Origin: Halobacteriales archaeon YIM A00010
Lineage (GTDB): Archaea > Halobacteriota > Halobacteria > Halobacteriales > Haloarculaceae
Length of the DNA: 64,000 bases
Assembly: GCA_025041175.1 (NCBI GenBank)
Contig: JAKCFJ010000006.1
Coordinates: 62,001-126,000, forward strand
Reading direction: 5' to 3'
Shown: positions 9,890-63,940 of the stretch, in pieces
How the letters are laid out: every line of letters begins with the position of its first letter
Numbering within the stretch: the stretch's first letter is position 1
The notes under the pieces: generated by a model
Database searches by the model: none
What the model was told of the DNA's origin: nothing
Seen by the model: only the letters and a program-made list of their open reading frames with translations
Translations under genes and position numbers: made by a program

Positions 9890-10068
9890 GATAAGAGAAA
9901 GGGTCGGTTAGACATATAAAGGTCGTTATGACGTTTTTCAGCCATAATATCCGCCAATCTTATCTCCTACCTCAAAATGGACCAACATCAAAGTTCCCTT
10001 GCCGTCCGCTCATTCGCCTCGAAATCGTCACAAAAACTTCTAAGTAGATACCACGGTCTCGTCATAGT
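9890..10068. promoter_or_regulatory. Divergent promoter region between the nuclease/methyltransferase pair and brxA
   Basis: 179 bp between two diverging transcription units. It holds the second copy of the 24-base repeat at 9985-10008 (CATCAAAGTTCCCTTGCCG). AT-rich stretches near 9895-9950 and 10031-10048 could serve as TATA elements for the two directions. No Shine-Dalgarno sequence stands right before ATG 10069, consistent with leaderless transcription in haloarchaea. Confidence 0.45.
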
Positions 10069-10908: not shown

Positions 10909-10913
10909 CTTCC

Positions 10914-13900
10914 ATGAAGGACCTGTTCGAGAAACACGACGCGACCTTCGAGGAGTCGATTCGCATCGACCGGAAGTTCGAGGAGGACGAAGACAGAGCC
11001 GCTCATCGCGACCAGCTCTACCGCCACTACCTCGACACCTACCACATCACAAAGGCTTCAGAAAACTATCTCAAGGACTTCTTCGCTCGAATCCACGGCC
11101 ACGACGAGGAGATGCGCAAGGGAGCCAATCACTGGCTCTACGGGTACTACGGGAGCGGGAAGAGTCACCTGCTGACGGTCCTCAACCTCCTCACCGCGTC
11201 TGCAGATCTCGAAGAGGAAGACAGAGAGGAGGTCTGGAATCGGCTGGATTCGGATGGTTCCTACACCGAGCTCTTCGATACCTGGTCCTCGATGCTCGAC
11301 GAGTACCGTCTCGTCCCTCTCCCGATCAACCTCCTGAAGTACCAAAGCGTCCGGGAGCAGAGCTTCAGTGAAATCATCCTCCAAGCAGTCTATCAAGCAC
11401 GAGGCCTCTCGAACCGACTTGACGTCGCATTCTTCGAGGAGTGGTACCAGAATCAGGGAACGTGGGACCAACGTGATGACCTCACGAAAGAGATCCTCCA
11501 AGACGAAGACGTTCCAAACGCGCAACAGTACTCGTGGGACGACGTCCAGCAGTACCGAATCCTCTCCGACCTCGTCCTGGAGGAACTCGTCGAACGAGAG
11601 ACGGGCACCGCAGATGGGTTGACAGACATCCAACGGCAGGATATCGGGCAGCGGATGGCTGTCGAAGCCGTTGAGGCGTATCGACAAGACCTCGAAGCGG
11701 CGTCGGAGAAACCAGTCAAGATCGTCCTCCTCGTGGACGAGGTGACGCTGTTCATTGGTGGAAACTACCAGCGTCTCTCGGAACTCAACGCACTCGCGGA
11801 AAGTATCGATACGATTGGCGATGGAGACATCCAGATGGTCGCGACGGCGCAGTCCGAAATCGAGGACGTCCGACCGGGACTTGCCGCGAAGCAACTCGAC
11901 TTCGGGATTCTCAAGGACCGATTCCCACACCAGTACCACCTGCCAAGTCATCACGTCGGAGAAATCGTCCAGCGTCGCCTCCTCGAGAAGACCGAAGAGG
12001 GAGCAGACTGGGTTGAGTCAGAAGCACTGACGGCGCGGGTACATCCGACCTCCACGTTCGTCTACTCAGAGGTTGGACAAAACACAGAGCCACCTCTCAA
12101 TCGAGTAGACGAAGACAAGTTCGTAAAGTTCTATCCGCTCCTACCTTATCAGCCGGCGCTCTTCCTAGAGATTCTCTCGAATCTTCGGAACGAGTTGGCC
12201 GACTCGACGAAGTCGATCTTCTCAGGAACAGCGAGAGCAATTCTCGCCATCGTCGCCGGACTCCGGGACCGCTGGATGCGCGACGAGAAGAAAGACGAGC
12301 TGTCCCTCATCAGTCTCGTCGACTTCTATGACCTGATTCAATACGAACTCGAGGACATCATCCCCAACGAGATCGAAGTTCTAGAAGAGATTGAAGACGA
12401 CGAGAACACGACTGATTTCGATCTCAAGGTCGCAAAAGCAGTCTTACTCCTATCGTACGTGCCCGATTCAGTCCCACAGAACGACGCCAACATCGCGGTT
12501 GCAGTGATGGACGACCTTAACGGCCAGCCGCGGACGACTGTCCGAAACCAGGTCCAGAATTCACTGGAGAACCTCGACAAGTACATCAGGCCAAACACGG
12601 CCGAGGACGGGCCTCTACTCCGAATCACGGATCGAGAGGAACGAGAGATCATCGAAGAGGCACGCAAAAATCGCGAGAACCCAGATTGGGACGAGATTAT
12701 CGCTGCTCTCGACAACGAACTTTGGGCAGACATCCGTCCTCGCCTGAACCTGCCAACGTCGGTTCCCTACGGCGGAGACGGTGACAACTACCCCATCTCG
12801 TATAGCTTCTCCATCGATGGGCAACCACTAGATGGGGATGACGAGCACGAGAGTGCGCTCGAAGCATCCATCGTTATCCGGGGCGTGCGACCTGATGTCG
12901 ACTCTAAGAAAGTCAACGAGGGAACGATCTACTGGTCGGTCAAGGAGGATGGATTGGATGATCTCCGAAGCCAGCTCATCGAGTGGTGGTCGTTCCACAA
13001 AGCGACGGCCGAGACGGAGACACCCGATACGATAGCCCGAGACGTCGACGATGCAGCGGACAGGGTGAAAAGTAAGCTCGCGAGCGCACTCAAAGATGGC
13101 TCGTACAAGGTTGAATCTCAGGAACCCCGTGGTCTCGAGTCTGCGGTCAAAGAGTGCATCAACCGTGCCTATCCCTCGTTCTTCCACCCCGTCATGCTCG
13201 AGGTGGACCAGAGCTACCTCTCGGAGCTAAAACGACTCGACGACGACGAGGAGTACCCGGAGTGGGCACAGAAAATCGATGTCCCAACACCAGATGCGGA
13301 GGTGTCCACGATGGGGACGATTGCGAAAGAGATTCGAGGCGCCGTCGGTCGAACGCTGGTCGACCATGACAACGAGATGGGTCTGCCAGCGCTCTTCGAG
13401 AAGATCACCGAGGAGACGCCGTTCTACGGGGAGGTCAAACCGGCAGTAACGGCGGTCCTCTGGGGGCTGTGTCGCGCGGGAGAGTTCCGTCCCGTTGCAG
13501 AGGACGGAGAGGCTCTCGCCGCGGATGAACTGCTGACGCTCTCTCAACAGATGGAGATCAAGCTGCGTACGGCACCGTCGTCGACGTCGCTCAAGGAACA
13601 GTTCATCGATGCTGGAATCATCGACCCGATTCAGACGGTCGACGAGGGAATTGTTGCTCTCGAAGAACTGAACGAGTCGATGAAGAGACGAGCACGAACG
13701 CTTGCAGAGACGACAGAAGTCAGTACAGAGACTGAACTGGAGAACGATGCGCTCGTCTCTCTGGTAGCGGCGTTCAGTAATACTCTCTCCGAAATGGCAG
13801 ATACTGCAGAATCTCGCGTCGAAGCAATCACTGCAGACGATACGGATTGGGAGAAAGTAATCGATCAGGTGGCGAGTGACGAAGAGTGGATATCTGCGGT

Positions 13901-45849: not shown

Positions 45850-46359
45850 TTATGAGTAATCATGGAGGAGTACAGCGGCGATGTGGGGGCGCTGGATACG
45901 TAAGCCCGTAGTGGTGTAGGTTGGATAGCGTTGCACTTCGCGGATGAGGTAGTCAGTGGGGAGCCTGCAGGTGTCTTTTCGAATTTCAGCTTTCAGTGAG
46001 GCAGTCTCCTTACCTTGTTCATCGAACATCTCCTCACGGACCCATCCTCTCGAGGCCTGACGGAACTGAAGCCACGCTCCGCCCTCGAAAAACAGCCGGG
46101 CCGTCGTCAGTCCCTCCTCGTCAGTCTGGAGAGAGTGATCGACGATCGCTGGCGGGCGCTCGATATACGTCTCTGGTGGTTGGTGAGTGGATCGGGTAGC
46201 ACACTCCGGGCAGGTGTACTCGGCGTCTTCGCCACCCCGATAGTTGATGCGTGGTGCCCGGTGAGCCGGGAAGGAATGCTTGCAGTTCGGACACGTGATC
46301 TGGTTAACGGTCCTGCTATCGACGGTCGGATCGGTCTTCTGTGGTGGTGAATTACCCAT
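45850..46359 (-). CDS. Zinc-ribbon protein co-transcribed with tfb
   Basis: 169 residues. The N-terminal zinc ribbon has CPNCKHSF and CPECATRS separated by 25 residues. A C-terminal domain (TARLFFEGGAWLQFRQASRG, CRLPTDYLIREVQRYPTY) is beta-rich. Its start overlaps the tfb stop by 8 bp, so it is translated with that factor and may be its partner or regulator. No family recognised. Confidence 0.6.
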   Translation of the reverse strand: MGNSPPQKTDPTVDSRTVNQITCPNCKHSFPAHRAPRINYRGGEDAEYTCPECATRSTHQPPETYIERPPAIVDHSLQTDEEGLTTARLFFEGGAWLQFRQASRGWVREEMFDEQGKETASLKAEIRKDTCRLPTDYLIREVQRYPTYTTTGLRIQRPHIAAVLLHDYS

Positions 46360-47251
46360 TGTCTAACAACTCTCGATAATGTTCTCTGATAGTCATCCGC
46401 GTAACATCAGCAACGTTGCTGATCTCCTGTTGTGTGAGTCGTTTATCCGTCTCGTAAGAAGCAGCATACAATGCCGCGGCGGCGAGTCCAGCGGGACGTT
46501 TCCCGCTCGTATATTGGGTCCCCACGACGGATTCGAGGTGATCACGAGCCTGTCGATGGACCGCTTGGGAACAGTCAAGTTGCGAGGAAAACCGTGGGAG
46601 ATAAGCGATCGGATTGGTGGGTTCGATCGCTAAGCCTAGCTCGGTGGCAATTATTCGATATGCACGCCCAATCTCTTGACGGCCCACACGAGCGACTGTC
46701 GCCATTTCATCGAGCGTTCGAGGAATTCCTTCCTGGCGGGCCGCCGCATACACACAAGCAGTAGCAACAGCTTCGATTGACCGCCCGATCAGGAGATCTT
46801 TGGCATGTGCTCGCCGATAGATGACGCTCGCAGTCTCACGCGCGGGTTGGGGCAAGCCGAGTGTGCTTGCCACCCGGTCGACTTCCCCAAGCGCCTGTTT
46901 GAGATGCCGCTCTGTGGAATTACGAGTCCGATAGCGCTCGTTCCATTTCCGCAGCCGCTGGACCTTCTTACGCTGGCGTGAGGATAGAGAGTTACCGTAG
47001 GCGTCTGTGTTCTGCCATCCGATGGTAGTCGACAACCCCTTGTCGTGCAGCATCTGGGTTGTCGGCATACCAACTCGACTCTTTTGGTTGTTCTCCTGGG
47101 CGTCGAACGCACGCCACTCCGGACCGCGATCGATTGCCTTCTCCTCAACTACCAGTCCACATTTCTCACAGACCGTCTCACCGTGTCCGTTATTGGTCGT
47201 TAACCGCCCATCACACTCCGGACAGAGGGATTGAGTAGAGGTGGATTGCAT
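46352..47251 (-). CDS. tfb: Transcription initiation factor B (TFB) paralogue
   Basis: 299 residues from ATG 47251; a GTG three codons earlier is also possible. The N-terminal zinc ribbon has CPECDGRL and CEKCGLVV, followed by the B-linker with GPEWRAFD and MPTTQMLHDKGLSTTIGW. Two cyclin-like repeats follow (LGLPQPARETASVIYRRA ..., QARDHLESVVGTQY ...), the second with the recognition helix QEISNVADVTRMTIREHY. It recruits RNA polymerase to TATA/BRE promoters. The B-reader sequence is less conserved than in housekeeping TFBs, so it is probably a specialised paralogue. Divergent from 47583. Confidence 0.93.
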   Translation of the reverse strand: MQSTSTQSLCPECDGRLTTNNGHGETVCEKCGLVVEEKAIDRGPEWRAFDAQENNQKSRVGMPTTQMLHDKGLSTTIGWQNTDAYGNSLSSRQRKKVQRLRKWNERYRTRNSTERHLKQALGEVDRVASTLGLPQPARETASVIYRRAHAKDLLIGRSIEAVATACVYAAARQEGIPRTLDEMATVARVGRQEIGRAYRIIATELGLAIEPTNPIAYLPRFSSQLDCSQAVHRQARDHLESVVGTQYTSGKRPAGLAAAALYAASYETDKRLTQQEISNVADVTRMTIREHYRELLDNG

Positions 47252-47582
47252 ATCAATCACCTATGATACGAACACAAAGTCTGATTTATCGGAATCACCA
47301 GTCCGCCGGATCGTCTAACCCGTACAGTCACCAGTTGGGTGATGAGGTGTCGATAGGCCATGCGATGTTCAGAACATCTTTATCATCCCTCACCATAAAT
47401 GTTCTGTTCATCCATGACTAATGAATAAGTCCATATGTGTTATCGACGGGATGATACTGATGATACAGCGTTTCCAGCCTCTAGTATACAGTCAGACAAC
47501 GCTTAGTTAGGGTCATATCTATTCACATTTGTTCAGAACATTCAGTAGAAACTGTTACGTATGAGGAGAACATAGGCTGATC
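47252..47582. promoter_or_regulatory. Divergent promoter region with TGTTCAGAACA palindromes
   Basis: 331 bp between tfb and the winged-helix operon. ATGTTCAGAACAT at 47365-47377 and TGTTCAGAACA at 47530-47540 are palindromes. A partial copy, ATGTTCTGTTCAT, lies at 47399-47411. The last complete site is about 43 bp before ATG 47583, and the other two stand between the promoters. The winged-helix protein encoded at 47583 is the natural candidate to bind them. Confidence 0.6.
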
Positions 47583-48719
47583 ATGCCCCGGCCGAACGAT
47601 ACCTCATCTCGTCCAACCAGCGTGCTCGTTCGAGCTGGCGAGATCCTACGGGTGTTAAAGCCAGCAACACTCGGAACGTTACTCACCGTCTATGAAGATA
47701 ACTCCCTCACCCAGGAGGAGATCGCTGAGAGTGTTAGAAGCGGTCGATCGACCATCACAAAATATCTTCGCTCGCTCGATGATCTTGGACTCATCGAGAG
47801 TCATGCATCGCAGTATCCAGTTACCTCTACTGGAGAAACCGTTATTAGTCATATCGCCAGCATGGTCGATCAGGTGTGGAATGGATTGAGTACTGTCGAC
47901 TGGACTGATGAGAACGACAAGGCAGAATTGGCAACATATCTAGAGCCACTGTGTGGCTCTCGAAAAATATCGATCGAATCATATTTTATCCTATATTCGA
48001 TATATACAAGAAGTGGCACTACTGGATTGTTGGGGCGGCCACAGTCCGTCCGGTTGGAAGACATCGTTCTCGATGTAGAAACACGCCAGTATGAGAGAGA
48101 CGAGCAGACGTCAACCGAACAAATTCGAGGGAAACTTGAGCGCTTCGCTGCTGAAGACGCGATCATTTTCGAAGACCAGCAAGCGACACTCACTGAAAAA
48201 GGTCAACAGCAGGGTCGGGTATTAGATGATCTAGCACGGTTCCTTGAGGAATACCAGCCGGAGACGAGCACCAGTGACGAGAGGGACGGACATCATCACA
48301 CCGCTACCTCGTCTACTGAAGACACTACTGCTGGAACACCTGTTGATACATCGTCCACTCCATCTGATTCAGGGAGCCTTGCTCAACAGATCCAGCCGCA
48401 TGGATTCCTGGGTCGGGAGCCAGTCTCCATCGAAGAGGATGAAGTACCTCCGCAAGAGACACCAACCGCGATCCCAGTATTCTGTATTCGGTCAGCGTCA
48501 GACGATACTGAGGATGCTTCACGATCGTCACTAACCCCTGTTGTGCCATTCACATCAATGACTGCGAACGAATTGATGGATCACATCAGCACAGTCGTGC
48601 GTGAACACGACGGGGAGGTCCAGCTAGAGCCGTTCTGGATGCCACGAATCGGAGAGCAGTTCTATCCCGTGGAACCGGCCGACGTTTCTATCTCAGATTC
48701 ATCGGGAGGTCCGTCATGA
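47583..48719 (+). CDS. Winged-helix regulator with C-terminal unknown domain
   Basis: 378 residues. N-terminal winged helix: LGTLLTVYEDNSLTQEEIAE, SGRSTITKYLRSLDDLGLIE and the wing HASQYPVTSTGETV. A second helical region (LERFAAEDAIIFEDQQATLT) precedes a disordered Ser/Thr/Asp linker (about residues 225-270). A C-terminal domain with PVVPFTSMTANELMDHISTV follows. It overlaps the next gene by 4 bp (ATGA). It is probably an autoregulator acting on the palindromes upstream. The family is known only as a haloarchaeal regulator type. Confidence 0.75.
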   Translation: MPRPNDTSSRPTSVLVRAGEILRVLKPATLGTLLTVYEDNSLTQEEIAESVRSGRSTITKYLRSLDDLGLIESHASQYPVTSTGETVISHIASMVDQVWNGLSTVDWTDENDKAELATYLEPLCGSRKISIESYFILYSIYTRSGTTGLLGRPQSVRLEDIVLDVETRQYERDEQTSTEQIRGKLERFAAEDAIIFEDQQATLTEKGQQQGRVLDDLARFLEEYQPETSTSDERDGHHHTATSSTEDTTAGTPVDTSSTPSDSGSLAQQIQPHGFLGREPVSIEEDEVPPQETPTAIPVFCIRSASDDTEDASRSSLTPVVPFTSMTANELMDHISTVVREHDGEVQLEPFWMPRIGEQFYPVEPADVSISDSSGGPS

Positions 48720-50170
48720 CCACACAACATCTGTCCCATTCTATCACCGTGGAACTGGGACCGACATTCGGCTCAGACATCGACCGGGTCCGTAAGAGCC
48801 AGGTCAGCTGGTTAGATGGGATGACTGTGAGCAACGACCCAATTTTCGCCGTTGAACAACCGGTTGAGTTGGTTGGGGTAAGCGCGAGCGGGTCGTCTGA
48901 CACTAGTGTCCCTCTACCCTCTCCCGCGTCATCACTCACATTCGTTCCGGCTGGCGAACGAAAGACCCGAGGCATCATGCCCGATTCCCACATCGTCAAT
49001 CAGCTTCGATCGAATGGATCGACAGGGATGTGCGTCGACTCGTTATCTCGCTCCGTGCTGATAACAGATGTCGATGAGCGCACAGTCATTGACGCAATTC
49101 AAGCACAAGCCGATGTCAATACGGACAGTCTCAATGCTCTCAAACGCGATCTCCTTGTTCCGAAATTTTACGACGACCTTCCCCAGGCGAAAGCCTCGCA
49201 AGCAACAGCCCTGCTCAAAAAGAACGTTCGGCGTCACGAGCGCGAACACGTTCGATGTCTTCTAAACCCTGAAACCGCCATCTGGAACGAGCTCGAAGTG
49301 TACTGGCGGTCGGTCCTCCTCGGGAAGAATCCCCGTACCTGGAATGATCCATCATTTCTTTCTCGCTTTGCCGATCTGTATACGATTCCCAGCCAGTATA
49401 CGATCGAACTGCTTGCGATGGCTCGTGAGAGATATGCGGCAGCCGATTCAGCCGTCGAACAGGCGGTCAAATCGGAGGTCGCATCCCAGCGTGGGACTGA
49501 GCAAGTGCTCTTGCAACGCTTTCGAGACCACGGCATTGACCAAGACACCCTTATCGAACTGTTACGATCGCCTGTCAGCGAGCAGTACACCGACCTCTGG
49601 CTGATGTACATTCTAACCGAGCTGCAGGCTGGCCGATCGTTGGATAAAATCGAGGTCGACCAGTTCCATACGACGTATTCTCCGTCACTTGCTGCATACG
49701 ATGGGGCTGTCGGTGATCAAAAAACACAGAGTTTGTTTGCTGGGTTCATGCGCGAGTGGATGATCGGACCGGTCTTTGAACTCGTCCGGCTCACGTTCAC
49801 CGATGGCCAATTTGTACTTGAGCGCGCATGGTATTCGATGAATCCGGATATTTCGGACGCTGAGTGTCTTCTTGCCGTGCGACGAGCTTTGTTCCAACGA
49901 GAATTCATAGCTACGTTCGGGGTTGAAAGTGGGCTCGATGATCTCCGTATGGACCGACAAATGGCCGTTGAACGGACGATCCATGATGAGTCGTTCAAAA
50001 CGGAGGTGCTCTTTGATCGGTCCGTGCCATCTTCGGATCAACTCTCCACAGATGTCAAAACAGCGTACGAATCAACAGCGAGCACGTTGCTTGGACCACA
50101 CGCGACAACGGATGATCTCTGCACCTGGCTGAACGATCCTCAGTATGGATTCACAGATCATTCGACGTGA
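48716..50170 (+). CDS. Large hypothetical protein
   Basis: 484 residues, soluble and mainly helical after residue 110 (ALKRDLLVPKFYDDLPQAKA, IELLAMARERYAAADSAVEQ). No catalytic motif, signal or membrane segment was recognised. Translationally coupled with the regulator upstream and with the Tat-exported protein downstream by 4-bp overlaps, so the three are probably made together. The function is unknown. Confidence 0.65.
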   Translation: MTTQHLSHSITVELGPTFGSDIDRVRKSQVSWLDGMTVSNDPIFAVEQPVELVGVSASGSSDTSVPLPSPASSLTFVPAGERKTRGIMPDSHIVNQLRSNGSTGMCVDSLSRSVLITDVDERTVIDAIQAQADVNTDSLNALKRDLLVPKFYDDLPQAKASQATALLKKNVRRHEREHVRCLLNPETAIWNELEVYWRSVLLGKNPRTWNDPSFLSRFADLYTIPSQYTIELLAMARERYAAADSAVEQAVKSEVASQRGTEQVLLQRFRDHGIDQDTLIELLRSPVSEQYTDLWLMYILTELQAGRSLDKIEVDQFHTTYSPSLAAYDGAVGDQKTQSLFAGFMREWMIGPVFELVRLTFTDGQFVLERAWYSMNPDISDAECLLAVRRALFQREFIATFGVESGLDDLRMDRQMAVERTIHDESFKTEVLFDRSVPSSDQLSTDVKTAYESTASTLLGPHATTDDLCTWLNDPQYGFTDHST

Positions 50171-50628
50171 CCATAGTTCAAGAGAGACCAATGACCAATC
50201 GCAACACACAATCGACTGAATCGATCCTCGATCGTGAGGGACGCGGCCCGTCTTGTAGTCGCCGTCAACTCCTCATCTATGCAACTACGCTCGTTAGTAC
50301 CACTGGCACGACAGTCAGCGGCATAGTGAATGCAGCCGAAACCGCCGAGAAACACAATTCATCTGATAAAAATACAGGTGGTAATAAATCCAATATCGCA
50401 GAGTTCGATAAAGTATTACGGGTGAAAGGGACTGGATCAGGTGCTAATTCCTATTATATCGAGGCAAGTGCCACAATCCGCCAGATAGGATACGCACAGC
50501 AAGGTCAAGACGACACTGCCGCCACAGGGTCCGTTCAGAAGGGTGAGTCCGATTTGTACGGATTCAACGGGTGGGTCCGGAGGATTTCTACTCGTGGGAG
50601 CGTTAAATACCATACATATGACCAATAA
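50167..50628 (+). CDS. Tat-exported small protein
   Basis: 153 residues from GTG 50167, overlapping the upstream stop; ATG 50191 is an alternative. The signal has SCSRRQLLIYATTLVSTTGT, a twin-arginine motif followed by a hydrophobic stretch; no lipobox cysteine. The mature part (EFDKVLRVKGTGSGANSYYI, then EASATIRQIGYAQQ) is beta-rich and probably extracellular. No family recognised. Downstream 50629-50766 is AT-rich and likely contains the terminator and the next promoter. Confidence 0.65.
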   Translation: MTIVQERPMTNRNTQSTESILDREGRGPSCSRRQLLIYATTLVSTTGTTVSGIVNAAETAEKHNSSDKNTGGNKSNIAEFDKVLRVKGTGSGANSYYIEASATIRQIGYAQQGQDDTAATGSVQKGESDLYGFNGWVRRISTRGSVKYHTYDQ

Positions 50629-50766
50629 GTACCGTGTACTGTACTGGGTATTATGATATTCATCTATCGTTCTAATAAATAATATATTGTAATAGTTGTG
50701 TAGATACAACTATGTCTACATCAGATAGCAACTGTTATCGGTATGCAGGTATATAACACATAACTA

Positions 50767-52155
50767 ATGACGAATCGATCAGCATATCTCACCGTTCCAG
50801 GCCCATCGGTGACGTCGGTCCTTCTCAACATTCCATATGTGCTGAGTCTGTCGTCCGACCCGCCGCCAGTTATTCTCATGGATGTCCACGACTACGAACG
50901 CCTTCGGGCAGAGACGCTCCAAGATACGGGTGACAACAAGAAAGCGCCCTATCTGCTGATGGCCTTCGACGATCTCCGTCGACGGGATTTCCTTCGTCTC
51001 ATCGATTACGCGGACTTGTACCCAGCATCCGTTCAGGAATTGTATCTTGAGCAAAACCAAGAGCTGCTGGCTGACACACCGGAATGGGTTCACCGGCAAA
51101 TGGCGATGGAGGGAACTGCTGGCTGGATCGACTACGGACGAGGCGAGTACCAAGAGGGATTCCGTGCGAGTCTCGGTGAAGACCCAGCTGCATTCGATCA
51201 GCTTCGACAGGCGGAACACCGACCGCTTCGGAGGTTAAAGAGCGGTACTGGCGATCCAGAGAGTATCAACGAAAAGATTCTCAGTAGAGGGGTTGCAGCA
51301 CTGGCAGTCCGACGTCGGGCAGACCATGTTCTAGATCTCGATGTTCAAGGTGTTATTACGGGGCCTGAATACTATCTGCTTGGTGACTTTCTGACAGCCA
51401 CGCAATCGCGGCAGCATTCCGAGGTACCTGTTGAGCAAACGACCGCGGGTGCTAACGTGATCGATACCGATGCGGACCATTTAGCCACCTTAGACCCTGT
51501 CAATCATGTCGCGGGGATGCCTCCGAAGACTATCACTCACATCCGAGATGTGTTAGACACTGTAGGCGAACTTGCCACGGAGATCACTGGAACCCAACAC
51601 GACGATTGGTTTGTTCTCGGCCCTACGTTCGCGCTTCCCCAGTACAACGGGTTATTCAACCTCGATCGTATCCGTATGCAGATGAACAATGGGATCGATG
51701 CGAATACCCTTGCCGAGGAAACTATCTCCGCACTCACTACGCTCGAACGGAGAGCAGACGACGATACGCTTTCCCCAAATAAACGGTACTACGAGGCCGA
51801 GGCTCTCGCTGAGCGACGTGTTGATTCATCTCCTTACGGCAACATACAGGGCGATGAGCTGGCCGAGTTGCTTGAGTACACACTCACGTTGTCGGATCAT
51901 TCGCCAACGCTTCGAACACTGACCGATGAGAAGGGTATTTCTGAGGCGGCTGTATTCGTCGCGGCGAGCATTATGAGTGATCCAGTTCGACGGTATGATA
52001 CCGATACTGTGTATCGTCGGGCGATGGAGCTTATAACTAGAGTTGCCCCACCATCGGTTGACCACCAAGAGCTCAAGATGCTTCGGAAGGAACGGCGGAC
52101 CGATACCTGGGATGAACACACCGATTGGTTCGAAACCGTTGATCGCGCCCGGTGA
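50767..52155 (+). CDS. Large hypothetical protein
   Basis: 462 residues, soluble and acidic. The N-terminus (YLTVPGPSVTSVLLNIPYVL, PPPVILMDVHDYERLRAET) looks like an alpha/beta domain; the rest is helical. No motif recognised. An AT-rich promoter region of 138 bp precedes it. It follows the regulator operon in the same direction and may belong to the same accessory set. Confidence 0.6.
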   Translation: MTNRSAYLTVPGPSVTSVLLNIPYVLSLSSDPPPVILMDVHDYERLRAETLQDTGDNKKAPYLLMAFDDLRRRDFLRLIDYADLYPASVQELYLEQNQELLADTPEWVHRQMAMEGTAGWIDYGRGEYQEGFRASLGEDPAAFDQLRQAEHRPLRRLKSGTGDPESINEKILSRGVAALAVRRRADHVLDLDVQGVITGPEYYLLGDFLTATQSRQHSEVPVEQTTAGANVIDTDADHLATLDPVNHVAGMPPKTITHIRDVLDTVGELATEITGTQHDDWFVLGPTFALPQYNGLFNLDRIRMQMNNGIDANTLAEETISALTTLERRADDDTLSPNKRYYEAEALAERRVDSSPYGNIQGDELAELLEYTLTLSDHSPTLRTLTDEKGISEAAVFVAASIMSDPVRRYDTDTVYRRAMELITRVAPPSVDHQELKMLRKERRTDTWDEHTDWFETVDRAR

Positions 52156-54036: not shown

Positions 54037-55185
54037 TCAATCTGTGATGTGTTCCGCTACAACCGCCCGAATTTCCCTTTTGAATCTGGCTATTCCGTAT
54101 CTCTCTTTGATATCTGGAAGGGATTCCCGAAGATCCATCGCTAATTGAGGTTTCTGTAGTATCTGCTCTACTTTGTGTATCGCATCATTTTCATTTTCAT
54201 AAACCAAATTTGAATTATAACCAATAATTTCGTTCTGACCACCGTTATTGGGGACGATCGGTATCATTCCAGCTGCAACCATCTCGGCTACGGCTATTCC
54301 AAAGTGCTCTCCGAGCATGGTATGCAGCCCAAATTTATGAGTGTTCAACAGGGTTATCAAATTCTCTCGTGAGAGGTCGCCTTCATAAAATAGATAATCT
54401 TTCGCTTCAGCGTGCTCCCGAACGGTGTCAACGTATGCCGTATCTTTACCGGCTACACCAACGATATGTAAATGGATATCGTGACCCCGAGACACTAACT
54501 CATCGACAATCCTGATCCCTTGTAATATGTTTTTTGACGGATGGATCCGACCGACCATAGCGAACCCCTCCTCACGAGATGACCACTCCGGGGTGGGCTT
54601 GAACTGTTTAGTATTCACAGGTGGATATATTACGTCTGGATGAAACCCGTGTAATCGTTGAACATAGTCAGCGGTCCACTCAGAATTAGCAACTATCTTT
54701 CCATTCCTAAATTTGCTCTTTGAGTATCCCAGTATTTTGTTGCACACGGAATCGTGTCCTCGCATTTTGAGATATCTGTACTGACCAACATCAGCACTTT
54801 CGTAGGTGTACGCCTGATTGAGCTGTGGAAAATGGATATATTCGATGCTATTCTCCCCGCCACATATCTCGTTTTGAGTAGAGATTACGATCTCCTCACC
54901 GTCGATCCTTTGTTTGATCAGCCGTCGAATACAGCTTGTATATGTTTGATGTGAGAAATTGTTTATTAATAGTGATGATACTATCTTATTTGGAATTGTT
55001 TTATGCTCTATTTCATCTTGGTTAACATTCGTTCCGAAAAAATCATTGTGTTCGCCAATATCGAATTCGTTTATTGTAAGAAGAGTAATACAGTGATCCG
55101 TTTGTAATGCTTCGAGCACGCCCATACAAACGGCTTCACAGCCACTCATCCTCATTGATGGATGAACAACCGTAATGTCTGCCAT
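54037..55185 (-). CDS. Group 4 glycosyltransferase
   Basis: 382 residues from ATG 55185. GT-B fold: the nucleotide-sugar lobe starts at EGFAMVGRIHPSKNI. LHIVGVAG follows, then E-x7-E in MLGEHFGIAVAEMVAAGMIPIV, and the NEIIG loop. The N-terminal acceptor lobe begins ITVVHPSMRMSGCEAVCMG. It transfers sugar from an activated donor to a glycan or lipid. No membrane helix. The base composition is clearly AT-richer than on its left, starting an island that runs to about 61 kb. Divergent from the synthetase gene at 55288, so both could share a regulator. Confidence 0.88.
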   Translation of the reverse strand: MADITVVHPSMRMSGCEAVCMGVLEALQTDHCITLLTINEFDIGEHNDFFGTNVNQDEIEHKTIPNKIVSSLLINNFSHQTYTSCIRRLIKQRIDGEEIVISTQNEICGGENSIEYIHFPQLNQAYTYESADVGQYRYLKMRGHDSVCNKILGYSKSKFRNGKIVANSEWTADYVQRLHGFHPDVIYPPVNTKQFKPTPEWSSREEGFAMVGRIHPSKNILQGIRIVDELVSRGHDIHLHIVGVAGKDTAYVDTVREHAEAKDYLFYEGDLSRENLITLLNTHKFGLHTMLGEHFGIAVAEMVAAGMIPIVPNNGGQNEIIGYNSNLVYENENDAIHKVEQILQKPQLAMDLRESLPDIKERYGIARFKREIRAVVAEHITD

Positions 55186-55287
55186 ATACAGGGATCTTAT
55201 TCCATTCTAAATAAGCTATTTCTCTATTTTAATTATGTATATGAATATATAGAAAAACTCAATGCAAAGCATATAGGATTGAGGTGT

Positions 55288-57117
55288 ATGTCCGGTATCG
55301 TAGCGATAGTCGATAGAGGTAGACACGTTTCATCCGATCTGCTGCGAGATCTCTTAGATACTATGGATTATCGAGGCCACGATGGACAAGACAGTGTTAC
55401 TGATGGACATATAGGATTTGGCCATCAACACTTCTACACGACTCCTGAAGCGGTGGGTGAACGACAACCACTTGTTGATGATGGATATGCCCTAACGTTC
55501 GACGGACGGATCGATAATCGTAGAGAGATAATCCACACATTGGAGTCACTAAGTGGGGAGGAGTCCGATGCGAGAATCATTATAGAATTGTACAAAGAAC
55601 ATGATGGCTGTAGCTTTTTGACTGATCTCGTCGGGGCTTATGCATTTGCACTCTACGATAGCTATAACGAGAAAGTGATACTAGCGCGGGATAAAGTCGG
55701 AATTCGGCAACTATATTATTCAGTTATTGATAACGAAATCATTGCTGCTTCCGATATCAAATCAATACTTCGCCATCCATCGGTGGAGATCCGTATCAAT
55801 GAAGGACTACTCGCAGAGCATTTATTCGATAGTGTTTCAACGATAGGAGAAACCTTCTATGAGGGTATCCAGTATACCATACCAGGGACATATGTAACCA
55901 TCACGCAAGATGGGATCACACACAATCGGTACTGGGACCCTTCCGAACTAGAGGGAACGCTTAGTGGTGATAGCGAGCAGTTGGTGGAGATATTCCTAAA
56001 TAAGCTTGAAAGAGCAACCAAGTGCAGGCTGAGAACCAGAACAAATCCGGGGGTGATGATGAGCGGCGGTCTCGACTCAACCGCGATCGTGGCTGCGATA
56101 GACCGACTCGGGATTGATACAGTACCTACGTTCACTCACATCTATACTGAAGATATTGGCGATTGGGATGGTGAGGTAAAACGGATCGCAGAGATGGAAG
56201 AGCGGTTCGGAATACACAATGAGAAGCTGGTGATAGATGATGAGACAGTGCTGAAAACGCCGGAGATATACAGTACCCCGTTAGTGGAGGGTCCAATCAT
56301 CACCCCGACTCAAGCGATCACAGAGTCATTGTATGACCGAGCGAAACAATGGAACTGTACCGTCTTGCTCACTGGGAGAGGAGGAAATCGATTTGATGGG
56401 AGTCGGTTCACATACGCTGATTTGTTCTTAAATCGAAAGTATAGAACATGGCTGGCTCATGGGCGAGCAGACGATCTCTCATTGGCACAATTGGCGCTGT
56501 GGTATACTATGGCACCAATTTTACTGAATAAAATCACTAGCATTCATAATATTCATCGTGCGAATGGAGAAAAAGATCACGAGTCTATATACACCGAATC
56601 ATTCATCGAACAAGCCCAGATACGTGAGAGAGCCAATGACAACGGTGATGGCGTTACGTTTCACAGCATAGAAAAGCAGCTAGCATACAATAACCACCAT
56701 TATTCTAATAAAAACTTCTGGATTGCGATTAGCAGACAGACGGCACTCAATAAGGGAATCCAACTTAGATATCCATTGTTGGATTCCCGCATCGTAGAAT
56801 TCTTCTACGCGATCCCGTCAGAAATGTGGGCACAGAAAGGAGTGAAGAAGAACCTATTCCGGTCAGCATTTGGAGATATACTTCCAGAACGAGTCATTTC
56901 CCAAGAATCGAATACCGATGTCAATTTTGACGCTATGATCCATAATGATGAACAATTAATAGGTATGTTAAGGAATTCGTCCAACCTTGTGAATAACGGA
57001 GTAATATCCCCCGCAAATCTTGAACAGGAAATAGATGCATATAGGAATGAGGATCGATCAGTGATGGATATCTGGAAACTAGCATCTATCGAGATGTGGC
57101 TCGACACCGTAGTCTAA
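55288..57117 (+). CDS. Asparagine-synthetase-like amide synthetase lacking Cys2 (copy 1)
   Basis: 609 residues from ATG 55288 (MSGIVAIVDR); an upstream ATG at 55162 would add AT-rich, unlike sequence. The N-terminal Ntn/glutaminase-like domain (about 1-205) keeps the AsnB pattern, YRGHDGQDSVTDGHIG and FDGRIDNRREI, but position 2 is Ser instead of the Cys nucleophile. The C-terminal domain has the ATP PP-loop VMMSGGLDSTAIV (S259-S264). Loss of Cys2 means that it cannot take ammonia from glutamine. The related lasso-peptide cyclases and beta-lactam synthetases likewise form amides within a substrate after adenylation. It heads an AT-rich row with the S9 peptidase and a second copy. Confidence 0.85.
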   Translation: MSGIVAIVDRGRHVSSDLLRDLLDTMDYRGHDGQDSVTDGHIGFGHQHFYTTPEAVGERQPLVDDGYALTFDGRIDNRREIIHTLESLSGEESDARIIIELYKEHDGCSFLTDLVGAYAFALYDSYNEKVILARDKVGIRQLYYSVIDNEIIAASDIKSILRHPSVEIRINEGLLAEHLFDSVSTIGETFYEGIQYTIPGTYVTITQDGITHNRYWDPSELEGTLSGDSEQLVEIFLNKLERATKCRLRTRTNPGVMMSGGLDSTAIVAAIDRLGIDTVPTFTHIYTEDIGDWDGEVKRIAEMEERFGIHNEKLVIDDETVLKTPEIYSTPLVEGPIITPTQAITESLYDRAKQWNCTVLLTGRGGNRFDGSRFTYADLFLNRKYRTWLAHGRADDLSLAQLALWYTMAPILLNKITSIHNIHRANGEKDHESIYTESFIEQAQIRERANDNGDGVTFHSIEKQLAYNNHHYSNKNFWIAISRQTALNKGIQLRYPLLDSRIVEFFYAIPSEMWAQKGVKKNLFRSAFGDILPERVISQESNTDVNFDAMIHNDEQLIGMLRNSSNLVNNGVISPANLEQEIDAYRNEDRSVMDIWKLASIEMWLDTVV

Positions 57118-57230
57118 GCATTACTGCCAATAACCATCGAAAACAGTCGGTATCTGTTTTTCGTGTGTATTTTACTACTAACTAGTTTATTTTCGATATA
57201 TTTATTTGTGGGTGCAATATACCCTATCGT

Positions 57231-59006
57231 ATGAATCTAGAGCGCTTTTTCAACGAGTTATTCTCTCTCCCAGAGACAGTCGATTTTCGTGTCTCACCCA
57301 ACGGCAAGACTGTCGCATTCCGTGAGACAGGATCAAAAGGTGGTCGGATCTGTCTGTGGTCGCTAACTGAAGACGCAGTCCAGACCACGTCGCCGTGGTA
57401 CGAAGGGGGACTACAGTATAAGATATCGTGGTGTCCGCAGGGGCAACGGGTTTATTACTACGTAGAAGATGAGCACGGCCCCGATATTTATGCGCTCGCA
57501 CCTAGTGGCGACGTTACTACGATTGTCGCTGATGATGCTCACCACTATCTCGCGGACCTTCATCCATCCGGTGAGTGGCTCCTATACAGTTCGTCAGCTA
57601 CAGATCACCTTCAAAAAAAGAACATCAAGACCGACACAGCAGAGGCGTGGGGTCCCTCTGATTTCTCCGACCCATCCATTGTCGCCCGTTTTGACCATAC
57701 TGGTGAGCGTATCCTCATCATGCGAAATCCGACAGATGATCTTCAGAATCAGGATCTGTTCATCCACTCAAGCGATGGTACCGAGCAAAGAAGGGTACCG
57801 GTAACCGATACTGGAGACCGATCGTTCGGGACGGGGTGGCATCCCGAGGGTGATCGAATTCTTATGACATCCAATACAGAAAAACGGCCGGGAATCTTCG
57901 ATCTCCGGACAAACGAGATTGACTGGTTCGGTGCACAGGGATCACGGGAATATCCACTTGGGTTTTTCCCGAGCGGGACAGCATTTGCGACGATCAACAC
58001 AAGCGATAACCCCGTTGTTTATGAAATGGATGGAACCCGCCATGTGCTCACACCAGACACGGGCTGTTACGAAATCATCTATACGGCTCGTCGAGATATT
58101 TTCTTTCCGGAGGATGCCTTACTCCTCACACAAAGTGCAACGGATTACCCACCAGCTCCTGTACGCTATGATCATGAATCTAAGGGCGTACAACCGTTGT
58201 TTGACTATCCGATCTCGGACAGTGCTTGCAACCGACTAACAGCCGCTGAGACGGTCTCGATCCCTGTCTCGGAGGGCACAGTTCCAGGACTGCTCTACCC
58301 CAACTCCGAGCCCGGACCAGGAATCGTGCTTATCTATGGTGATTCCTCTGGAGATATTGCACAGTCATTTGACCGGCAGGCTCAGGCGTTTGCCGCCACA
58401 GGATATACAGTGCTCAGAGCTGCTACGCGTGGTAACCGGTTCACAACCCAAGAACACGACGATTTCGCTGCCGCCGGGCGTTGGCTCGCTGAGCAACCAA
58501 GTGTACAGCATGAACAGGTCGGCGTCTTCGGCCACTCTCACGGAGCGCATAACGTCCTAATGCAGTTGATCAACTATCCCGACGTCTGGGATGCAGGCAT
58601 TGCATGGAACGGCGTGGCCGATCTTCACGAGTTTCGTGAACACCCCGATGCGGCCGAAGCGTATTGGCGACCACTCGGTGATCCAGAGACGAATCAGGAG
58701 CGATGGCAAGCCAATAATCCTATTGATCGGATTGAGGAGCTCAGAGCGCCGCTACTGCTATATTACGGGACAGAAGATACGGAGCGGGTTACGACGGGAC
58801 GCAATTTCCGCGATGAACTCATAGCCTCTGGTTGGACCGAAGGGCCAGAGGGTAGTTTCGAGTATGTAGAAGGCGAAGGCGAAGGCCACTATGACGAGAC
58901 ACCGTCTCGACAGGCTGATCGATGGACGCTCTTTGTCGAATTTATCAACCGACGATTGGCAGATCAGTCCAATCTACAGGACGATACATATTCTCACAAC
59001 CGATAA
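57231..59006 (+). CDS. S9-family (prolyl oligopeptidase-like) serine peptidase
   Basis: 591 residues. The N-terminal beta-propeller (about 15-340) shows repeats such as PNGKTVAFRE, PQGQRVYYYVED and HPSGEWLLYSS. The alpha/beta-hydrolase domain carries the catalytic triad S436 in VFGHSHGAH, D516 in YYGTEDTERV and H553 in GEGHYD. No signal peptide, so cytoplasmic. It sits between two asparagine-synthetase-like genes in the same direction, with gaps of 113 and 67 bp. S9 enzymes with a propeller include lasso-peptide isopeptidases (AtxE2), which are encoded beside the cyclase. It could equally be an ordinary oligopeptidase. Confidence 0.88.
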   Translation: MNLERFFNELFSLPETVDFRVSPNGKTVAFRETGSKGGRICLWSLTEDAVQTTSPWYEGGLQYKISWCPQGQRVYYYVEDEHGPDIYALAPSGDVTTIVADDAHHYLADLHPSGEWLLYSSSATDHLQKKNIKTDTAEAWGPSDFSDPSIVARFDHTGERILIMRNPTDDLQNQDLFIHSSDGTEQRRVPVTDTGDRSFGTGWHPEGDRILMTSNTEKRPGIFDLRTNEIDWFGAQGSREYPLGFFPSGTAFATINTSDNPVVYEMDGTRHVLTPDTGCYEIIYTARRDIFFPEDALLLTQSATDYPPAPVRYDHESKGVQPLFDYPISDSACNRLTAAETVSIPVSEGTVPGLLYPNSEPGPGIVLIYGDSSGDIAQSFDRQAQAFAATGYTVLRAATRGNRFTTQEHDDFAAAGRWLAEQPSVQHEQVGVFGHSHGAHNVLMQLINYPDVWDAGIAWNGVADLHEFREHPDAAEAYWRPLGDPETNQERWQANNPIDRIEELRAPLLLYYGTEDTERVTTGRNFRDELIASGWTEGPEGSFEYVEGEGEGHYDETPSRQADRWTLFVEFINRRLADQSNLQDDTYSHNR

Positions 59007-59073
59007 AACCACCCATTCAAGTGAAGAATAAACATGAATTGCATTTAATATTGATGATGTATTATGCAATAGT

Positions 59074-60891
59074 ATGTCGGGTATCGTTGCGATGTTCGAT
59101 AGGGAGGAATATGTCTCAGATGACCTGATACATAGTTTATTAGATTCGATTGATTACCGAGGGCACGACGGTAGAGGAAGTATCACAAAGGGCCATATTG
59201 GCCTTGGACATCAGCATTTCTATACGACCCCCGAAGTGGTTGGCGAAGACCAGCCAATTGGTGGGAATGGATACCTACTAACCTTCGATGGGCGTATTGA
59301 TAACCGGTCTACCCTCAAAGACAGCTATTCGTTTATCACTACATCGCAGACAGATGCTCAGATATTCTTGCAGATGTGCGCCAAGATGTCTGTTGATACA
59401 GCTCTTCAGAAGATCGTCGGCGCGTTTGATTTTGCTCTGTGGGACCAAAACGATTTGAAGCTCATTGTTGGACGAGATAAAACGGGTATTCGACGGCTGT
59501 ATTACTCTGATCAGGAGGACTTTTTTGTGGCATCCACCTCGATTGAACCACTACTACAACATGAGCGCGTTGTAGAGCAGGTGAATGAAGAGAAGTTGTG
59601 TAGGTTTTTGACGAAGACGCTTAAGACAAACTCCTGTGAGACGTTTTATAGTGGAATTTCTTATTTAAAGCCAGGGGCCTACCTCACTGTTACTCATGAG
59701 GGAGTAGATCAGCACCGGTATTGGGACCCATCCGATTTGGAAGGGACGCTCACTGTGGATCGAGAGCAGGTCGAAGACATGTTTCGAAAACGTCTTGCAG
59801 CAGCCATTCGCAGTAGATTGCGGACGCGCTCTCCACCTGGTGTGATGATGAGTGGTGGTCTCGATTCCATCGCAATAGCCCGTGTGAGCCAGAAATACCT
59901 TAAACGACCAGTACGGGCTTATTCTATCATATACGACGAGGATGACAGAGGAGAAATTCCCACAGAGTATGAACGGATACATCTAGTAAAGTCAAAATAT
60001 GATATTGATGTATTCGAAATGAATAGCGAAAAATCGTTTGACCACATATCTACCTTTGAAAAGCTAGCACGTGGAAGTCCCTGCTATCCCGAATCAGCTT
60101 ACAACAGTCAGAGATTATTTAAAAAAGCATATGAACGAGGTGATCAGGTTCTTCTTACGGGGTACGGAGGGAACTTCTGGGAAGGAAATAGATTATACTA
60201 CCCGGATCTGCTTAAACGCAAGAGGTTTTTGAGGCTTCTTTCCTCAATGCAGTCCGATTCGGAGCAGATACGTCATCTTCTAAAGATAGCACTTATATTC
60301 AATATTTTCAGAGGACAGTCAGAGCCATTCATAGATAGCTCAAATATTATACAGTGGTCCGGATGGGGGGACAGATGTATTAATATCCTCGAAGATACAA
60401 CTCCATATCCGCAAGACAAAGCAGACTCATTCACGCGTTTAGAGCTTCGAAGCGTGTATCATATGTATCGAGACCAATTTATGCGAACTGCATTTTCGAA
60501 TATCGAAGATTTAGCCATTCAGCACAAGATCGAACGTAGACATCCACTGCTAGATTCACGAGTGGTAGAACTGTTGTTCTCCATGCCGATCGGGAATCTA
60601 TTTGATGGAAGATATAAGAGCGTTTTTCGAGATTCATTGGAAGGTGTTCTTCCAGAGCCAATCCTACAAATAGAACCAGACTGGGGAATCGAATCGCGGA
60701 CAAAGAGGGATGATAGGAAGATATTCGAGTTCACAGTATCATATCTATCGAACTCAGAACTAGAGCGGCGAAATATCTTGAATAATAAAACACTTTCTAA
60801 GGGAATACACGGATATTTTAAAGATAATAAGTATGGGCTGTCATTATGGAGGTTGCTCATAGCGGAAGCATGGTTAAAAAACGTTGATTAA
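59074..60891 (+). CDS. Asparagine-synthetase-like amide synthetase lacking Cys2 (copy 2)
   Basis: 605 residues, homologous along its length to the protein at 55288. The N-terminal domain opens MSGIVAMFDREEYVSDDL, again with Ser at position 2, then YRGHDGRGSITKGHIGLGHQ and FDGRIDNRSTL. The PP-loop is VMMSGGLDSIAIA (S260-S265). The C-terminal part differs most (for example HPLLDSRVVELLFSMP compared with YPLLDSRIVEFFYAIP). Two related synthetases flanking one peptidase suggest related substrates or a two-step assembly. Codon use is AT-rich as in copy 1. Confidence 0.85.
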   Translation: MSGIVAMFDREEYVSDDLIHSLLDSIDYRGHDGRGSITKGHIGLGHQHFYTTPEVVGEDQPIGGNGYLLTFDGRIDNRSTLKDSYSFITTSQTDAQIFLQMCAKMSVDTALQKIVGAFDFALWDQNDLKLIVGRDKTGIRRLYYSDQEDFFVASTSIEPLLQHERVVEQVNEEKLCRFLTKTLKTNSCETFYSGISYLKPGAYLTVTHEGVDQHRYWDPSDLEGTLTVDREQVEDMFRKRLAAAIRSRLRTRSPPGVMMSGGLDSIAIARVSQKYLKRPVRAYSIIYDEDDRGEIPTEYERIHLVKSKYDIDVFEMNSEKSFDHISTFEKLARGSPCYPESAYNSQRLFKKAYERGDQVLLTGYGGNFWEGNRLYYPDLLKRKRFLRLLSSMQSDSEQIRHLLKIALIFNIFRGQSEPFIDSSNIIQWSGWGDRCINILEDTTPYPQDKADSFTRLELRSVYHMYRDQFMRTAFSNIEDLAIQHKIERRHPLLDSRVVELLFSMPIGNLFDGRYKSVFRDSLEGVLPEPILQIEPDWGIESRTKRDDRKIFEFTVSYLSNSELERRNILNNKTLSKGIHGYFKDNKYGLSLWRLLIAEAWLKNVD

Positions 60892-61131
60892 TCTAAATAT
60901 AGTCGAGATAATCTTCGCATTTTTCCACACTATATCATGCCCGTATTGGATGATTTTATATACAATGATTGAATGAGTTAAGCATGTGGTGTGGAAGAAA
61001 TGACTAAAGGTGATTCAGGAACAGATAGCGAAGACGCGGATAGTAATGTGGACTACGACAGTGTCGACGTGATGCAGACCCGAACGCTAACGCTGTTGCG
61101 TCGGTGGGTAAGCCAAAAAGTACCTTAACAA

Positions 61132-62497: not shown

Positions 62498-63940
62498 ATG
62501 ACGACTGACGACACTGATGCGGACGGCGGCGATGCATCGCTCCTGTTTGAAGAACAGCAAGACACGACGGACTGGCCGATACCCCGACTGTTTTGGGAGT
62601 ACGGACGTGACTACAGACCGCTCATTGCGGTCGCGCTGCTGGCATCGATCCTCGGGCCGATCGCAAGCCTGCTTCCCACATACCTGCTCAAGGTCGTGAT
62701 CGATGCGGTAATCCTCGATACCACGGGCTTTACGCTCCCACTCGTCCCGACCGACTGGTTTTCGACCACTCGATGGCGGCAGCTGTTGCTCTCGGTCGGA
62801 CTGATCGTCGGGGCAGCAGTAACGAGCACTGCTCTCGGGTGGGTTAGTAGCTGGGCGTGGGGCCGATTTGCCCAAACTGTCCAACACGTCGTGCGGACCG
62901 ACGCTTACGAGAAGATCCAGCGGCTCGGAATCGCCTTTTTCGATGATCAGCAGACCGGTCAGATCCTCAGTATCCTCAACGACGACGTGAACGAACTCAA
63001 CCGGCTGCTCGAACGGTTTCTAGATGATCTCCTTCGGATTGGAGCCCGGTTCATCGGCATCGCCGCGTTTCTGGTGTATCTGCACTGGCAGCTCGCGCTC
63101 CTCGCGTTGCTCCCAGTGCCGATACTGGCCGTGATGAGTCGGTGGTTCATTACGCAAATCCGGCCGAAGTACGACGACGTTCGCCAGCGGGTGGGTGTGC
63201 TCAACGCGCGGATCGAAAATAGCCTGAGCGGCATCACAGTCGTCAAGGCTTACACTGCAGAGCCGTTCGAGGCTCACCGCGTCGACGATGCGTCGAAACA
63301 ACTGCTCGATACCCGGTGGGACGTGATCACCACGCGCATCAGCTTCTTTCCCGCGATGAATATCGTCAACTGGCTCAGCTTCGGCGTGCTCGTGGTGATC
63401 GGCGGGCTGTGGATTCTCAACGGGCCGCCGTTGTTCTTCACCAAGCCGTTATCGGTCGGTACGCTCGTGGCGTTTCTCACCTATAATCGGCAGTTCACGG
63501 GACCGCTGATCCAAGCCGGGCATCTGGTCGATCTGTACCACGACGCTCGGGCCTCGGTGGTTCGCATTTTCGCGCTAAACGACTACGACATCGAGATCAA
63601 CGACCACGAGAACGCCCTCTCACCCGTCAACGTCGACGGTGCAGTCGCGTATGAAGACGTGACGTTTCGGTATGATGGCGATGATGAGCCAGCCGTCGAT
63701 GGGATCAGCTTTGAAGTCGAACCGGGGGCATTCGTCGGACTCGTTGGGCCGACCGGCTCGGGCAAAACGACCCTGACAAAGCTCCTCCCCCGATTCTATG
63801 ACCCAGACGAGGGAACGATCCGGCTCGAAAGTCCGGATACTATCGGCGCTGATTGCTGTTGGGGGCGAAAAGCTCAATCCGAGCGCAATCTGCGATCGAG
63901 CCGCGATCTCCCGAGACAGTTGGTACGACCACAAGGATGA
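62498..63940 (+). pseudogene. ABC exporter gene truncated in its nucleotide-binding domain
   Basis: The transmembrane part has helices at LIAVALLASILGPIASLLPT, LLLSVGLIVGAAVTSTALGW, FIGIAAFLVYLHWQLALLALL, WLSFGVLVVIGGLWIL and others. It is a type IV exporter with coupling-helix sequence RTDAYEKIQRLGIAFFDDQQTG. The nucleotide-binding domain has Walker A VGPTGSGKTTL and FYDPDEGTIRL. Native sequence then stops near 63826; the Q-loop, LSGGQ signature and Walker B are missing. The last 37 residues are out-of-frame translation of a regulator gene. The product cannot hydrolyse ATP by itself. Confidence 0.85.

What the first reader, a model, noticed from the sequence alone, without database searches (positions are those of the whole stretch)
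54037..60891. AsnB-like / S9 peptidase / AsnB-like island: possible archaeal amide-forming natural-product cluster
Two asparagine-synthetase homologues both have Ser instead of the Cys2 nucleophile but keep the SGGLDS ATP site, so they cannot use glutamine. They flank a propeller-type S9 peptidase with a full triad (S436, D516, H553). In bacteria a glutaminase-dead AsnB homologue next to an S9 isopeptidase is typical of lasso-peptide clusters, which usually also have a transporter; an ABC exporter gene lies about 1.6 kb downstream. No precursor peptide, RRE (B1) or protease (B2) gene was found in the window, so the substrate could instead be a small molecule or glycan. The AT-rich composition indicates a transferred island.
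Basis: partly seen in the sequence, partly recalled or inferred. Interest (0 to 1): 0.75.

Follow-up and report, generated by a model that had tools for sequence, protein, structure and literature searches.

The report
Leaderless lasso-type peptide cluster in haloarchaea
A salt-loving archaeon carries ring-closing enzymes of the family that makes knotted "lasso" peptides, next to an overlooked 42-residue peptide gene that seems to need no leader, which suggests a simpler natural way of making ring-closed peptides than any I found described; no product has been observed.

Summary
In detail: two Ser2 (glutaminase-dead) AsnB homologues flank a propeller S9 hydrolase with an intact triad. In a tree both fall on the lasso-cyclase side, away from Cys2 amidotransferases, in one clade with AsnBs of other Halocatena species and one genome of another genus. 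It is conserved with the whole block in a second species and is under purifying selection (dN/dS 0.15; shifted frames 0.6 and 1.4). Each locus of this clade has a comparable 39-57 aa ORF nearby. These ORFs lack the YxxP...T leader seen beside other haloarchaeal lasso cyclases, and this genome lacks B1 and B2 above Pfam cut-offs. After Met removal, residue 1 is Gly/Ser/Thr/Ala and residue 8 (9 in one or two) is Asp/Glu: the lasso-ring signature at the very N-terminus. Best reading: a naturally leaderless lasso-type macrolactam RiPP with a C-terminal recognition tail. Ring closure, threading and the role of S9 are inferred. The nearby ABC exporter is truncated and outside the block; S9 belongs to a common haloarchaeal family.

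The parts
54037..55185 (-). GT4 family glycosyltransferase, divergent from AsnB1; part of the conserved block, role unknown
   Evidence: Pfam Glycos_transf_1 72 bits; 81% identical, same place, in L118; dN/dS 0.12
55288..57117 (+). AsnB1: glutaminase-dead (Ser2) AsnB homologue of the lasso-cyclase side
   Evidence: 82% identical in L118
57231..59006 (+). S9 hydrolase (beta-propeller plus alpha/beta hydrolase), triad S436/D516/H553
   Evidence: 84% identical in L118
59074..60891 (+). AsnB2: second Ser2 AsnB homologue, 36% identical to AsnB1
   Evidence: 79% identical in L118
61000..61128 (+). P1: 42-codon peptide gene, candidate leaderless precursor (MTKGDSGTDSEDADSNVDYDSVDVMQTRTLTLLRRWVSQKVP)
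   Evidence: 88% DNA identity to L118 against 30-65% in the intergenic flanks, dN/dS 0.146, Fisher p 0.0006; TATA-like box upstream
62498..63940 (+). Truncated ABC exporter; NOT part of the conserved block (its intact 83% relative lies beside another AsnB in L119)

Best explanation
The island makes a ribosomal peptide with a lasso-type macrolactam ring by a shortened pathway that needs no leader peptide. The 42-aa peptide is translated with its future ring at the very N-terminus. Methionine aminopeptidase removes Met1 because Thr/Ser/Gly/Ala follows. A lasso-cyclase-like AsnB adenylates the side chain of Asp/Glu8 with ATP and the free N-terminal amine attacks it, closing an 8-residue ring. Recognition is by the C-terminal part (Tyr-Asp region plus a basic stretch) instead of an N-terminal leader, so RRE (B1) and leader peptidase (B2) are dispensable and absent. 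The S9 hydrolase trims the tail or reopens the product. Shown: the gene block, selection on the peptide gene, the tree position of the synthetases, no B1/B2 above cut-off in this genome, recurrence of peptide plus AsnB. Inferred: that the peptide is the substrate, the ring, any threading, the role of S9, and why there are two AsnBs.
For: Tree: Cys2 AsnBs and the lasso side split at 100 (SH-aLRT); Halocatena AsnBs plus L042 form a clade at 99 inside the lasso side. P1 is under selection like the four large genes. Related or comparable small ORFs occur beside the other AsnBs of the clade: L058/L239, L057, L039, L240, L119, L042, and L038/L041 about 1 kb away. In all, residue 1 after Met is G/S/T/A and D/E stands at 8, or at 9 in L057 and, with the likelier start, L038/L041; background for D/E at 8 is 15% of 236 haloarchaeal ORFs. 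Other haloarchaeal members of the lasso side mostly have PqqD, Transglut_core3 and precursors with a YxxPx[LV]...T leader. Own genome: no PqqD, no B2 above cut-off. Lasso rings form at Asp/Glu 7-9 (PMC9266682). Pseudomycoidin is reported, by its title, to form in vivo without leader and leader peptidase (cited in PMC13003496 and PMC10885120).
Against: No product or expression data. P1 has Thr1, unusual for lasso peptides (Ser1 in L118). The ORFs beside L042, L038/L041 were picked with a filter that demands the pattern, and L119's has no known orthologue; only P1, P2 and P3 were chosen before the pattern was noticed. P1 is conserved in only two genomes. Two AsnBs for one peptide is unexplained. 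B1/B2 absence was tested genome-wide only for the window's genome. No direct evidence that S9 acts on the peptide; one S9 orthologue (L111) stands without AsnB.
Confidence: 0.55

Rival explanations
1. The small peptide is the substrate but the AsnB enzymes make another amide: C-terminal amidation, a Lys-Asp/Glu side-chain crosslink, or coupling to a second molecule. It would be a RiPP or conjugate but not an N-terminal macrolactam.
For: Two AsnBs per peptide suggest more than one bond; the peptides are rich in Lys and Asp/Glu. Beta-lactam synthetase and other AsnB relatives show that the fold makes different amides (PDB hits).
Against: The tree places these AsnBs with lasso cyclases, and D/E at residue 8-9 is kept across very diverged peptides.
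Confidence: 0.2
2. Ordinary lasso pathway in trans: the true precursor and the B1/B2 functions lie elsewhere in the genome, and the small ORF is an unrelated accessory peptide.
For: Some lasso-side haloarchaeal loci have no B1/B2 in the 20 kb read yet keep a classical precursor (L062, L294). One sub-cut-off Transglut_core3 match exists in the genome (24.1 bits, cut-off 26, in a 774-aa frame).
Against: No PqqD match in the genome; no leader-type precursor near any member of the clade; peptide ORFs recur beside the AsnBs.
Confidence: 0.1
3. The AsnBs amidate a small molecule, glycan or glycoprotein; the GT4 gene points to surface sugar chemistry and the peptide is regulatory.
For: A conserved GT4 gene is in the block and a GT4 homologue lies 7.5 kb from the L042 AsnB.
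Against: Both AsnBs lack the glutaminase Cys and fall outside the Cys2 amidotransferases; most clade loci have no adjacent GT.
Confidence: 0.1
4. The island is decaying: a transferred fragment of a lasso cluster without function.
For: Neighbouring exporter truncated; S. salina AsnB frameshifted and the L038 AsnB has lost the GxxK lysine and has only a 109-aa S9 remnant.
Against: dN/dS 0.12-0.18 for all four large genes and 0.15 for P1 between window and L118.
Confidence: 0.05

Closest known systems
Lasso peptide biosynthesis (precursor A, RRE B1, peptidase B2, cyclase C)
   Same: AsnB-type cyclase without the glutaminase Cys, on the lasso side of the tree; small residue followed by Asp/Glu at 8-9 in the presumed core; an S9 beta-propeller hydrolase nearby as in isopeptidase clusters.
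   Different: No leader, no YxxP/Thr-2 motif, no B1, no B2; presumed core at the extreme N-terminus with a C-terminal tail; two cyclases; threading unknown.
Classical haloarchaeal lasso-type clusters (e.g. Halopiger xanaduensis pHALXA01)
   Same: Homologous AsnB, same class of archaea; ABC exporter often near.
   Different: They carry PqqD, Transglut_core3 and, in most loci read, leader-type precursors, often with nucleotidyltransferase and HPr-kinase-like genes.
Pseudomycoidin (reported to form without leader and leader peptidase in vivo)
   Same: By its title, shows that a lasso cyclase can work on a leaderless core inside a cell (cited in PMC13003496 and PMC10885120).
   Different: The natural pathway has a B2 peptidase and tailoring genes (PMC8498205); the original paper was not held.
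Lasso isopeptidases AtxE2, SpI-IsoP (S9 / POP family)
   Same: Propeller plus alpha/beta hydrolase with Ser-Asp-His triad, next to a lasso-type cyclase.
   Different: Only 27.8 bits to the isopeptidase model with a 400-bit cut-off; nearest by sequence and predicted fold are acylaminoacyl and other S9 peptidases.

Membership tests
Lasso peptide biosynthetic cluster | AsnB-type C protein of lasso-cyclase descent | tested here: met
   Tree; NF033535 is the best NCBIfam model (249 and 219 bits) though below its 525-bit cut-off
Lasso peptide biosynthetic cluster | RRE / B1 (PqqD-like) protein | tested here: not met
   No PF05402 match in the genome
Lasso peptide biosynthetic cluster | B2 leader peptidase (Transglut_core3) | tested here: not met
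   Only a 24.1-bit match, cut-off 26, elsewhere in the genome inside a 774-aa frame
Lasso peptide biosynthetic cluster | Precursor with N-terminal leader (YxxP, Thr at -2) | tested here: not met
   No such ORF beside clade members; present beside other haloarchaeal lasso cyclases
Lasso peptide biosynthetic cluster | Small residue at 1 and Asp/Glu at 7-9 of the core | tested here: met
   Counting from residue 2 of the ORF, in all listed peptides; met only if the core starts right after Met
Lasso peptide biosynthetic cluster | Threaded isopeptide ring in the product | not testable with these tools
   needs LC-MS, MS/MS and NMR
Lasso isopeptidase (AtxE2 type) | Score above the curated NF033523 cut-off | tested here: not met
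   27.8 bits against 400
Lasso isopeptidase (AtxE2 type) | S9 fold with Ser-Asp-His triad | tested here: met
   S436, D516, H553 invariant; fold matches S9 peptidases
Lasso isopeptidase (AtxE2 type) | Hydrolysis of the isopeptide bond | not testable with these tools
   needs enzyme assay
Glutamine-dependent AsnB / polysaccharide amidotransferase | Cys2 nucleophile and placement with Cys2 AsnBs | tested here: not met
   Ser2 in both; opposite side of a split at 100

The most novel reading that the evidence does not exclude
A naturally leaderless branch of lasso-type RiPPs: the ring-forming residues sit at the N-terminus exposed by methionine aminopeptidase and recognition has moved to a C-terminal tail, so the pathway has lost B1 and B2 and needs only a peptide and a cyclase, with a dedicated S9 hydrolase in some loci.
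Probability: 0.5. Interest if true: 0.85.

Novelty: new variant of a known kind. Interest (0 to 1): 0.74.

Why it matters
The lasso pathways described in the reviews read here use a leader, an RRE and a dedicated peptidase before the ring closes. A natural version with only a peptide and a cyclase would show what the cyclase alone can do, give a minimal system for engineering ring-closed peptides, add an archaeal RiPP type that leader-based genome mining cannot find, and can be tested directly with two genes.

Tried and rejected
Rejected: AsnB1 start at 55162 (the upstream part looks like a promoter with a TATA-like box and carries a 2-nt indel against L118). ABC exporter as part of the cluster (truncated, not beside the L118 block). 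The 462-aa family at 50767 as a specific partner (multi-copy in Halocatena, up to 13 matches per genome). The 153-aa Tat-type protein at 50167 as precursor (not next to AsnB; no relative noticed near other AsnB loci). Polysaccharide amidotransferase reading (tree). Sister bacterial AsnBs L124 and L133 gave no clear leaderless peptide; L122 and L143 have leader-type precursors. The ORF annotated downstream of AsnB in Halocatena salina is the C-terminus of the same, frameshifted gene. P1 searched in 77 genomes of the family was found only in the window's genome and one other (that of L118); weaker hits look like chance.

Full report
WHERE IT IS. The window is part of a 219-kb contig (possibly a plasmid) of a 6.0-Mb haloarchaeal genome. 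A genome of the same genus, G361, matches Halocatena salina plasmid NZ_CP096021 in contig length and coordinates, so the genus is Halocatena.

OBSERVATION. The two AsnB homologues, the S9 gene, the motifs and the low GC are as described. AsnB1 starts at 55288. The divergent gene at 54037-55185 is a GT4 glycosyltransferase. NCBIfam ranks both AsnBs first as lasso cyclase (249 and 219 bits) but below the 525-bit cut-off; the S9 match to the lasso isopeptidase model (27.8 bits) is far below its 400-bit cut-off.

THE BLOCK IS A UNIT. In Halobacteriales archaeon YIM A00013 (L118) GT4, AsnB1, S9 and AsnB2 lie in the same order at 79-84% identity with different flanks. The ABC exporter is not there. 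In the window it is truncated and separated by diverged DNA. Its 83% relative sits beside another AsnB of the same genome (L119).

THE MISSED GENE. After AsnB2, DNA identity between the two species falls to 49-65%, is 88% over 61000-61128, then falls to 59%, 38% and 30%. That stretch is a 42-codon ORF, MTKGDSGTDSEDADSNVDYDSVDVMQTRTLTLLRRWVSQKVP (L118: MSKGDSGTDSEDQDSNVDYDNVDVMQTRTLTLLRRWISQRVP). dN/dS is 0.146, like the four large genes (0.12-0.18); the other two frames give 1.43 and 0.62. The excess of synonymous change has Fisher p 0.0006. A TATA-like box precedes it.

THE PATTERN. AsnB-S9 pairs recur in Halocatena as at least three diverged types, each kept between species or genomes (window/L118; L058/L239; L039/L240), though one S9 orthologue (L111) stands without AsnB. 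Small ORFs go with them: L058/L239 MGNDNNVLDSGTGKAPEYNKSDTVSLISLAQKGIKDKLIRK; L057 MGDKKKSKHDAGRGKTKEYDKAPDRRSVVTLTRQAVKNKLFK; L039 MSETGPHTEQKDHDQYDENRADNLVTQVKKKYSRIQRHLPR; L240 MSGKGNITEQKDAKQYDEKKNTTFGQVTEKYGLLKRHLPSSD; L119 MGTDHVKADGQYGSNDDDARLNVESDDPPEEIKELFELE; L042 MAYTGTEPDGGVGYVTADSPSVRDLVKRNVRRCISRVRGLF; L038/L041 MGQKMSTPPDSIEM..., about 1 kb from AsnB, dN/dS 0.26. In L039 the peptide lies after S9, in L240 between AsnB and S9, yet the two are clearly related. Without Met1, residue 1 is G/S/T/A and residue 8 is D/E (9 in L057; 8 or 9 in L038/L041 depending on the start). Background for D/E at 8 is 15% (n=236). P1, P2 and P3 were chosen before the pattern was noticed (0.15 cubed = 0.0035); L042 and L038/L041 were found with a filter for it, so they cannot count as independent proof. 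The sequence similarity between the peptide types is weak.

PHYLOGENY AND CONTRAST. In a 76-row tree, Cys2 AsnBs and the lasso side separate at 100; the Halocatena AsnBs and L042 form a clade at 99 inside the lasso side (quick tree, SH-aLRT only). Many of the best bacterial relatives outside this clade stand beside B1 and B2, and many haloarchaeal ones have leader-type precursors such as MSRESNDTYESPKVTEFGSVESLTESDKVGTGEDEYSG.... The window genome has no PqqD and only one sub-cut-off Transglut_core3 match elsewhere. In 146 genomes of the family the clade is confined to Halocatena and one genome of another genus (at least 642 bits; next 369); searches of 125 and 170 genomes of two other families gave at most 405 bits, and that locus has B1, B2 and a leader-type precursor.

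S9. The family occurs in 161 of 391 class genomes, and in the five plasmid neighbourhoods inspected it has no AsnB beside it. By sequence and predicted fold it resembles acylaminoacyl peptidases and other S9 enzymes (model pLDDT 69, so fold only). Its role here is open: tail trimming or opening of the ring.

MECHANISM. Published lasso biosynthesis removes a leader with B1/B2, then C adenylates Asp/Glu at 7-9 and the N-terminal amine closes the ring (PMC9266682). Here the N-terminus would be made by methionine aminopeptidase alone (established preference for small second residues; my own knowledge). Pseudomycoidin has been reported, by title, to form in vivo without leader and leader peptidase (cited in PMC13003496 and PMC10885120; paper not readable here). 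An artificial leader-to-follower swap works in graspetides (PMC13003496). I found no paper describing a natural leaderless lasso pathway in the held library; that library is incomplete. Archaeal lasso-peptide clusters as such are already known from genome mining (PMC12144867).

VERDICT. It works like a lasso pathway but is not filed as a lasso cluster, because B1, B2 and leader were tested and not met. New variant of a known kind; moderate confidence in the ring, lower in threading.

Noticed in passing
L043-L062, L292-L299 (other haloarchaea): Classical lasso-type clusters with PqqD, Transglut_core3, AsnB and leader-type precursors, often with a nucleotidyltransferase, an HPr-kinase-like gene and an ABC exporter, some with two AsnBs on opposite strands; the predicted cores often begin with Asn, Gln or Ser.
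   Followed up: partly
46352-52155: A TFB, HTH, 484-aa and 462-aa gene set; homologues lie near AsnB genes also in L057 and L119. The 462-aa family has no Pfam match and many copies per Halocatena genome.
   Followed up: partly
50167-50628: A 153-aa protein with a Tat-like signal (SRRQLLIYA) between the 484-aa and 462-aa genes; possibly a secreted small protein.
   Followed up: no
57195-57231 and upstream of AsnB1 and AsnB2: A short palindrome-like element (GGGTGCAATATACCC) between TATA-like box and start of S9, with related TGCAATA / TGCAAAG words before AsnB2 and AsnB1; possibly a shared operator.
   Followed up: no
L038 9158-12334 and L041: A related AsnB with a divergent APH-type kinase; frameshifted in Halocatena salina, and the L038 copy has lost the GxxK lysine: apparently decaying.
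   Followed up: partly
L040 (G000:C1) 7551-11260: Two adjacent, very diverged AsnB-like genes (655 and 578 aa) in the main replicon, with matches of similar arrangement in other Halocatena genomes.
   Followed up: no
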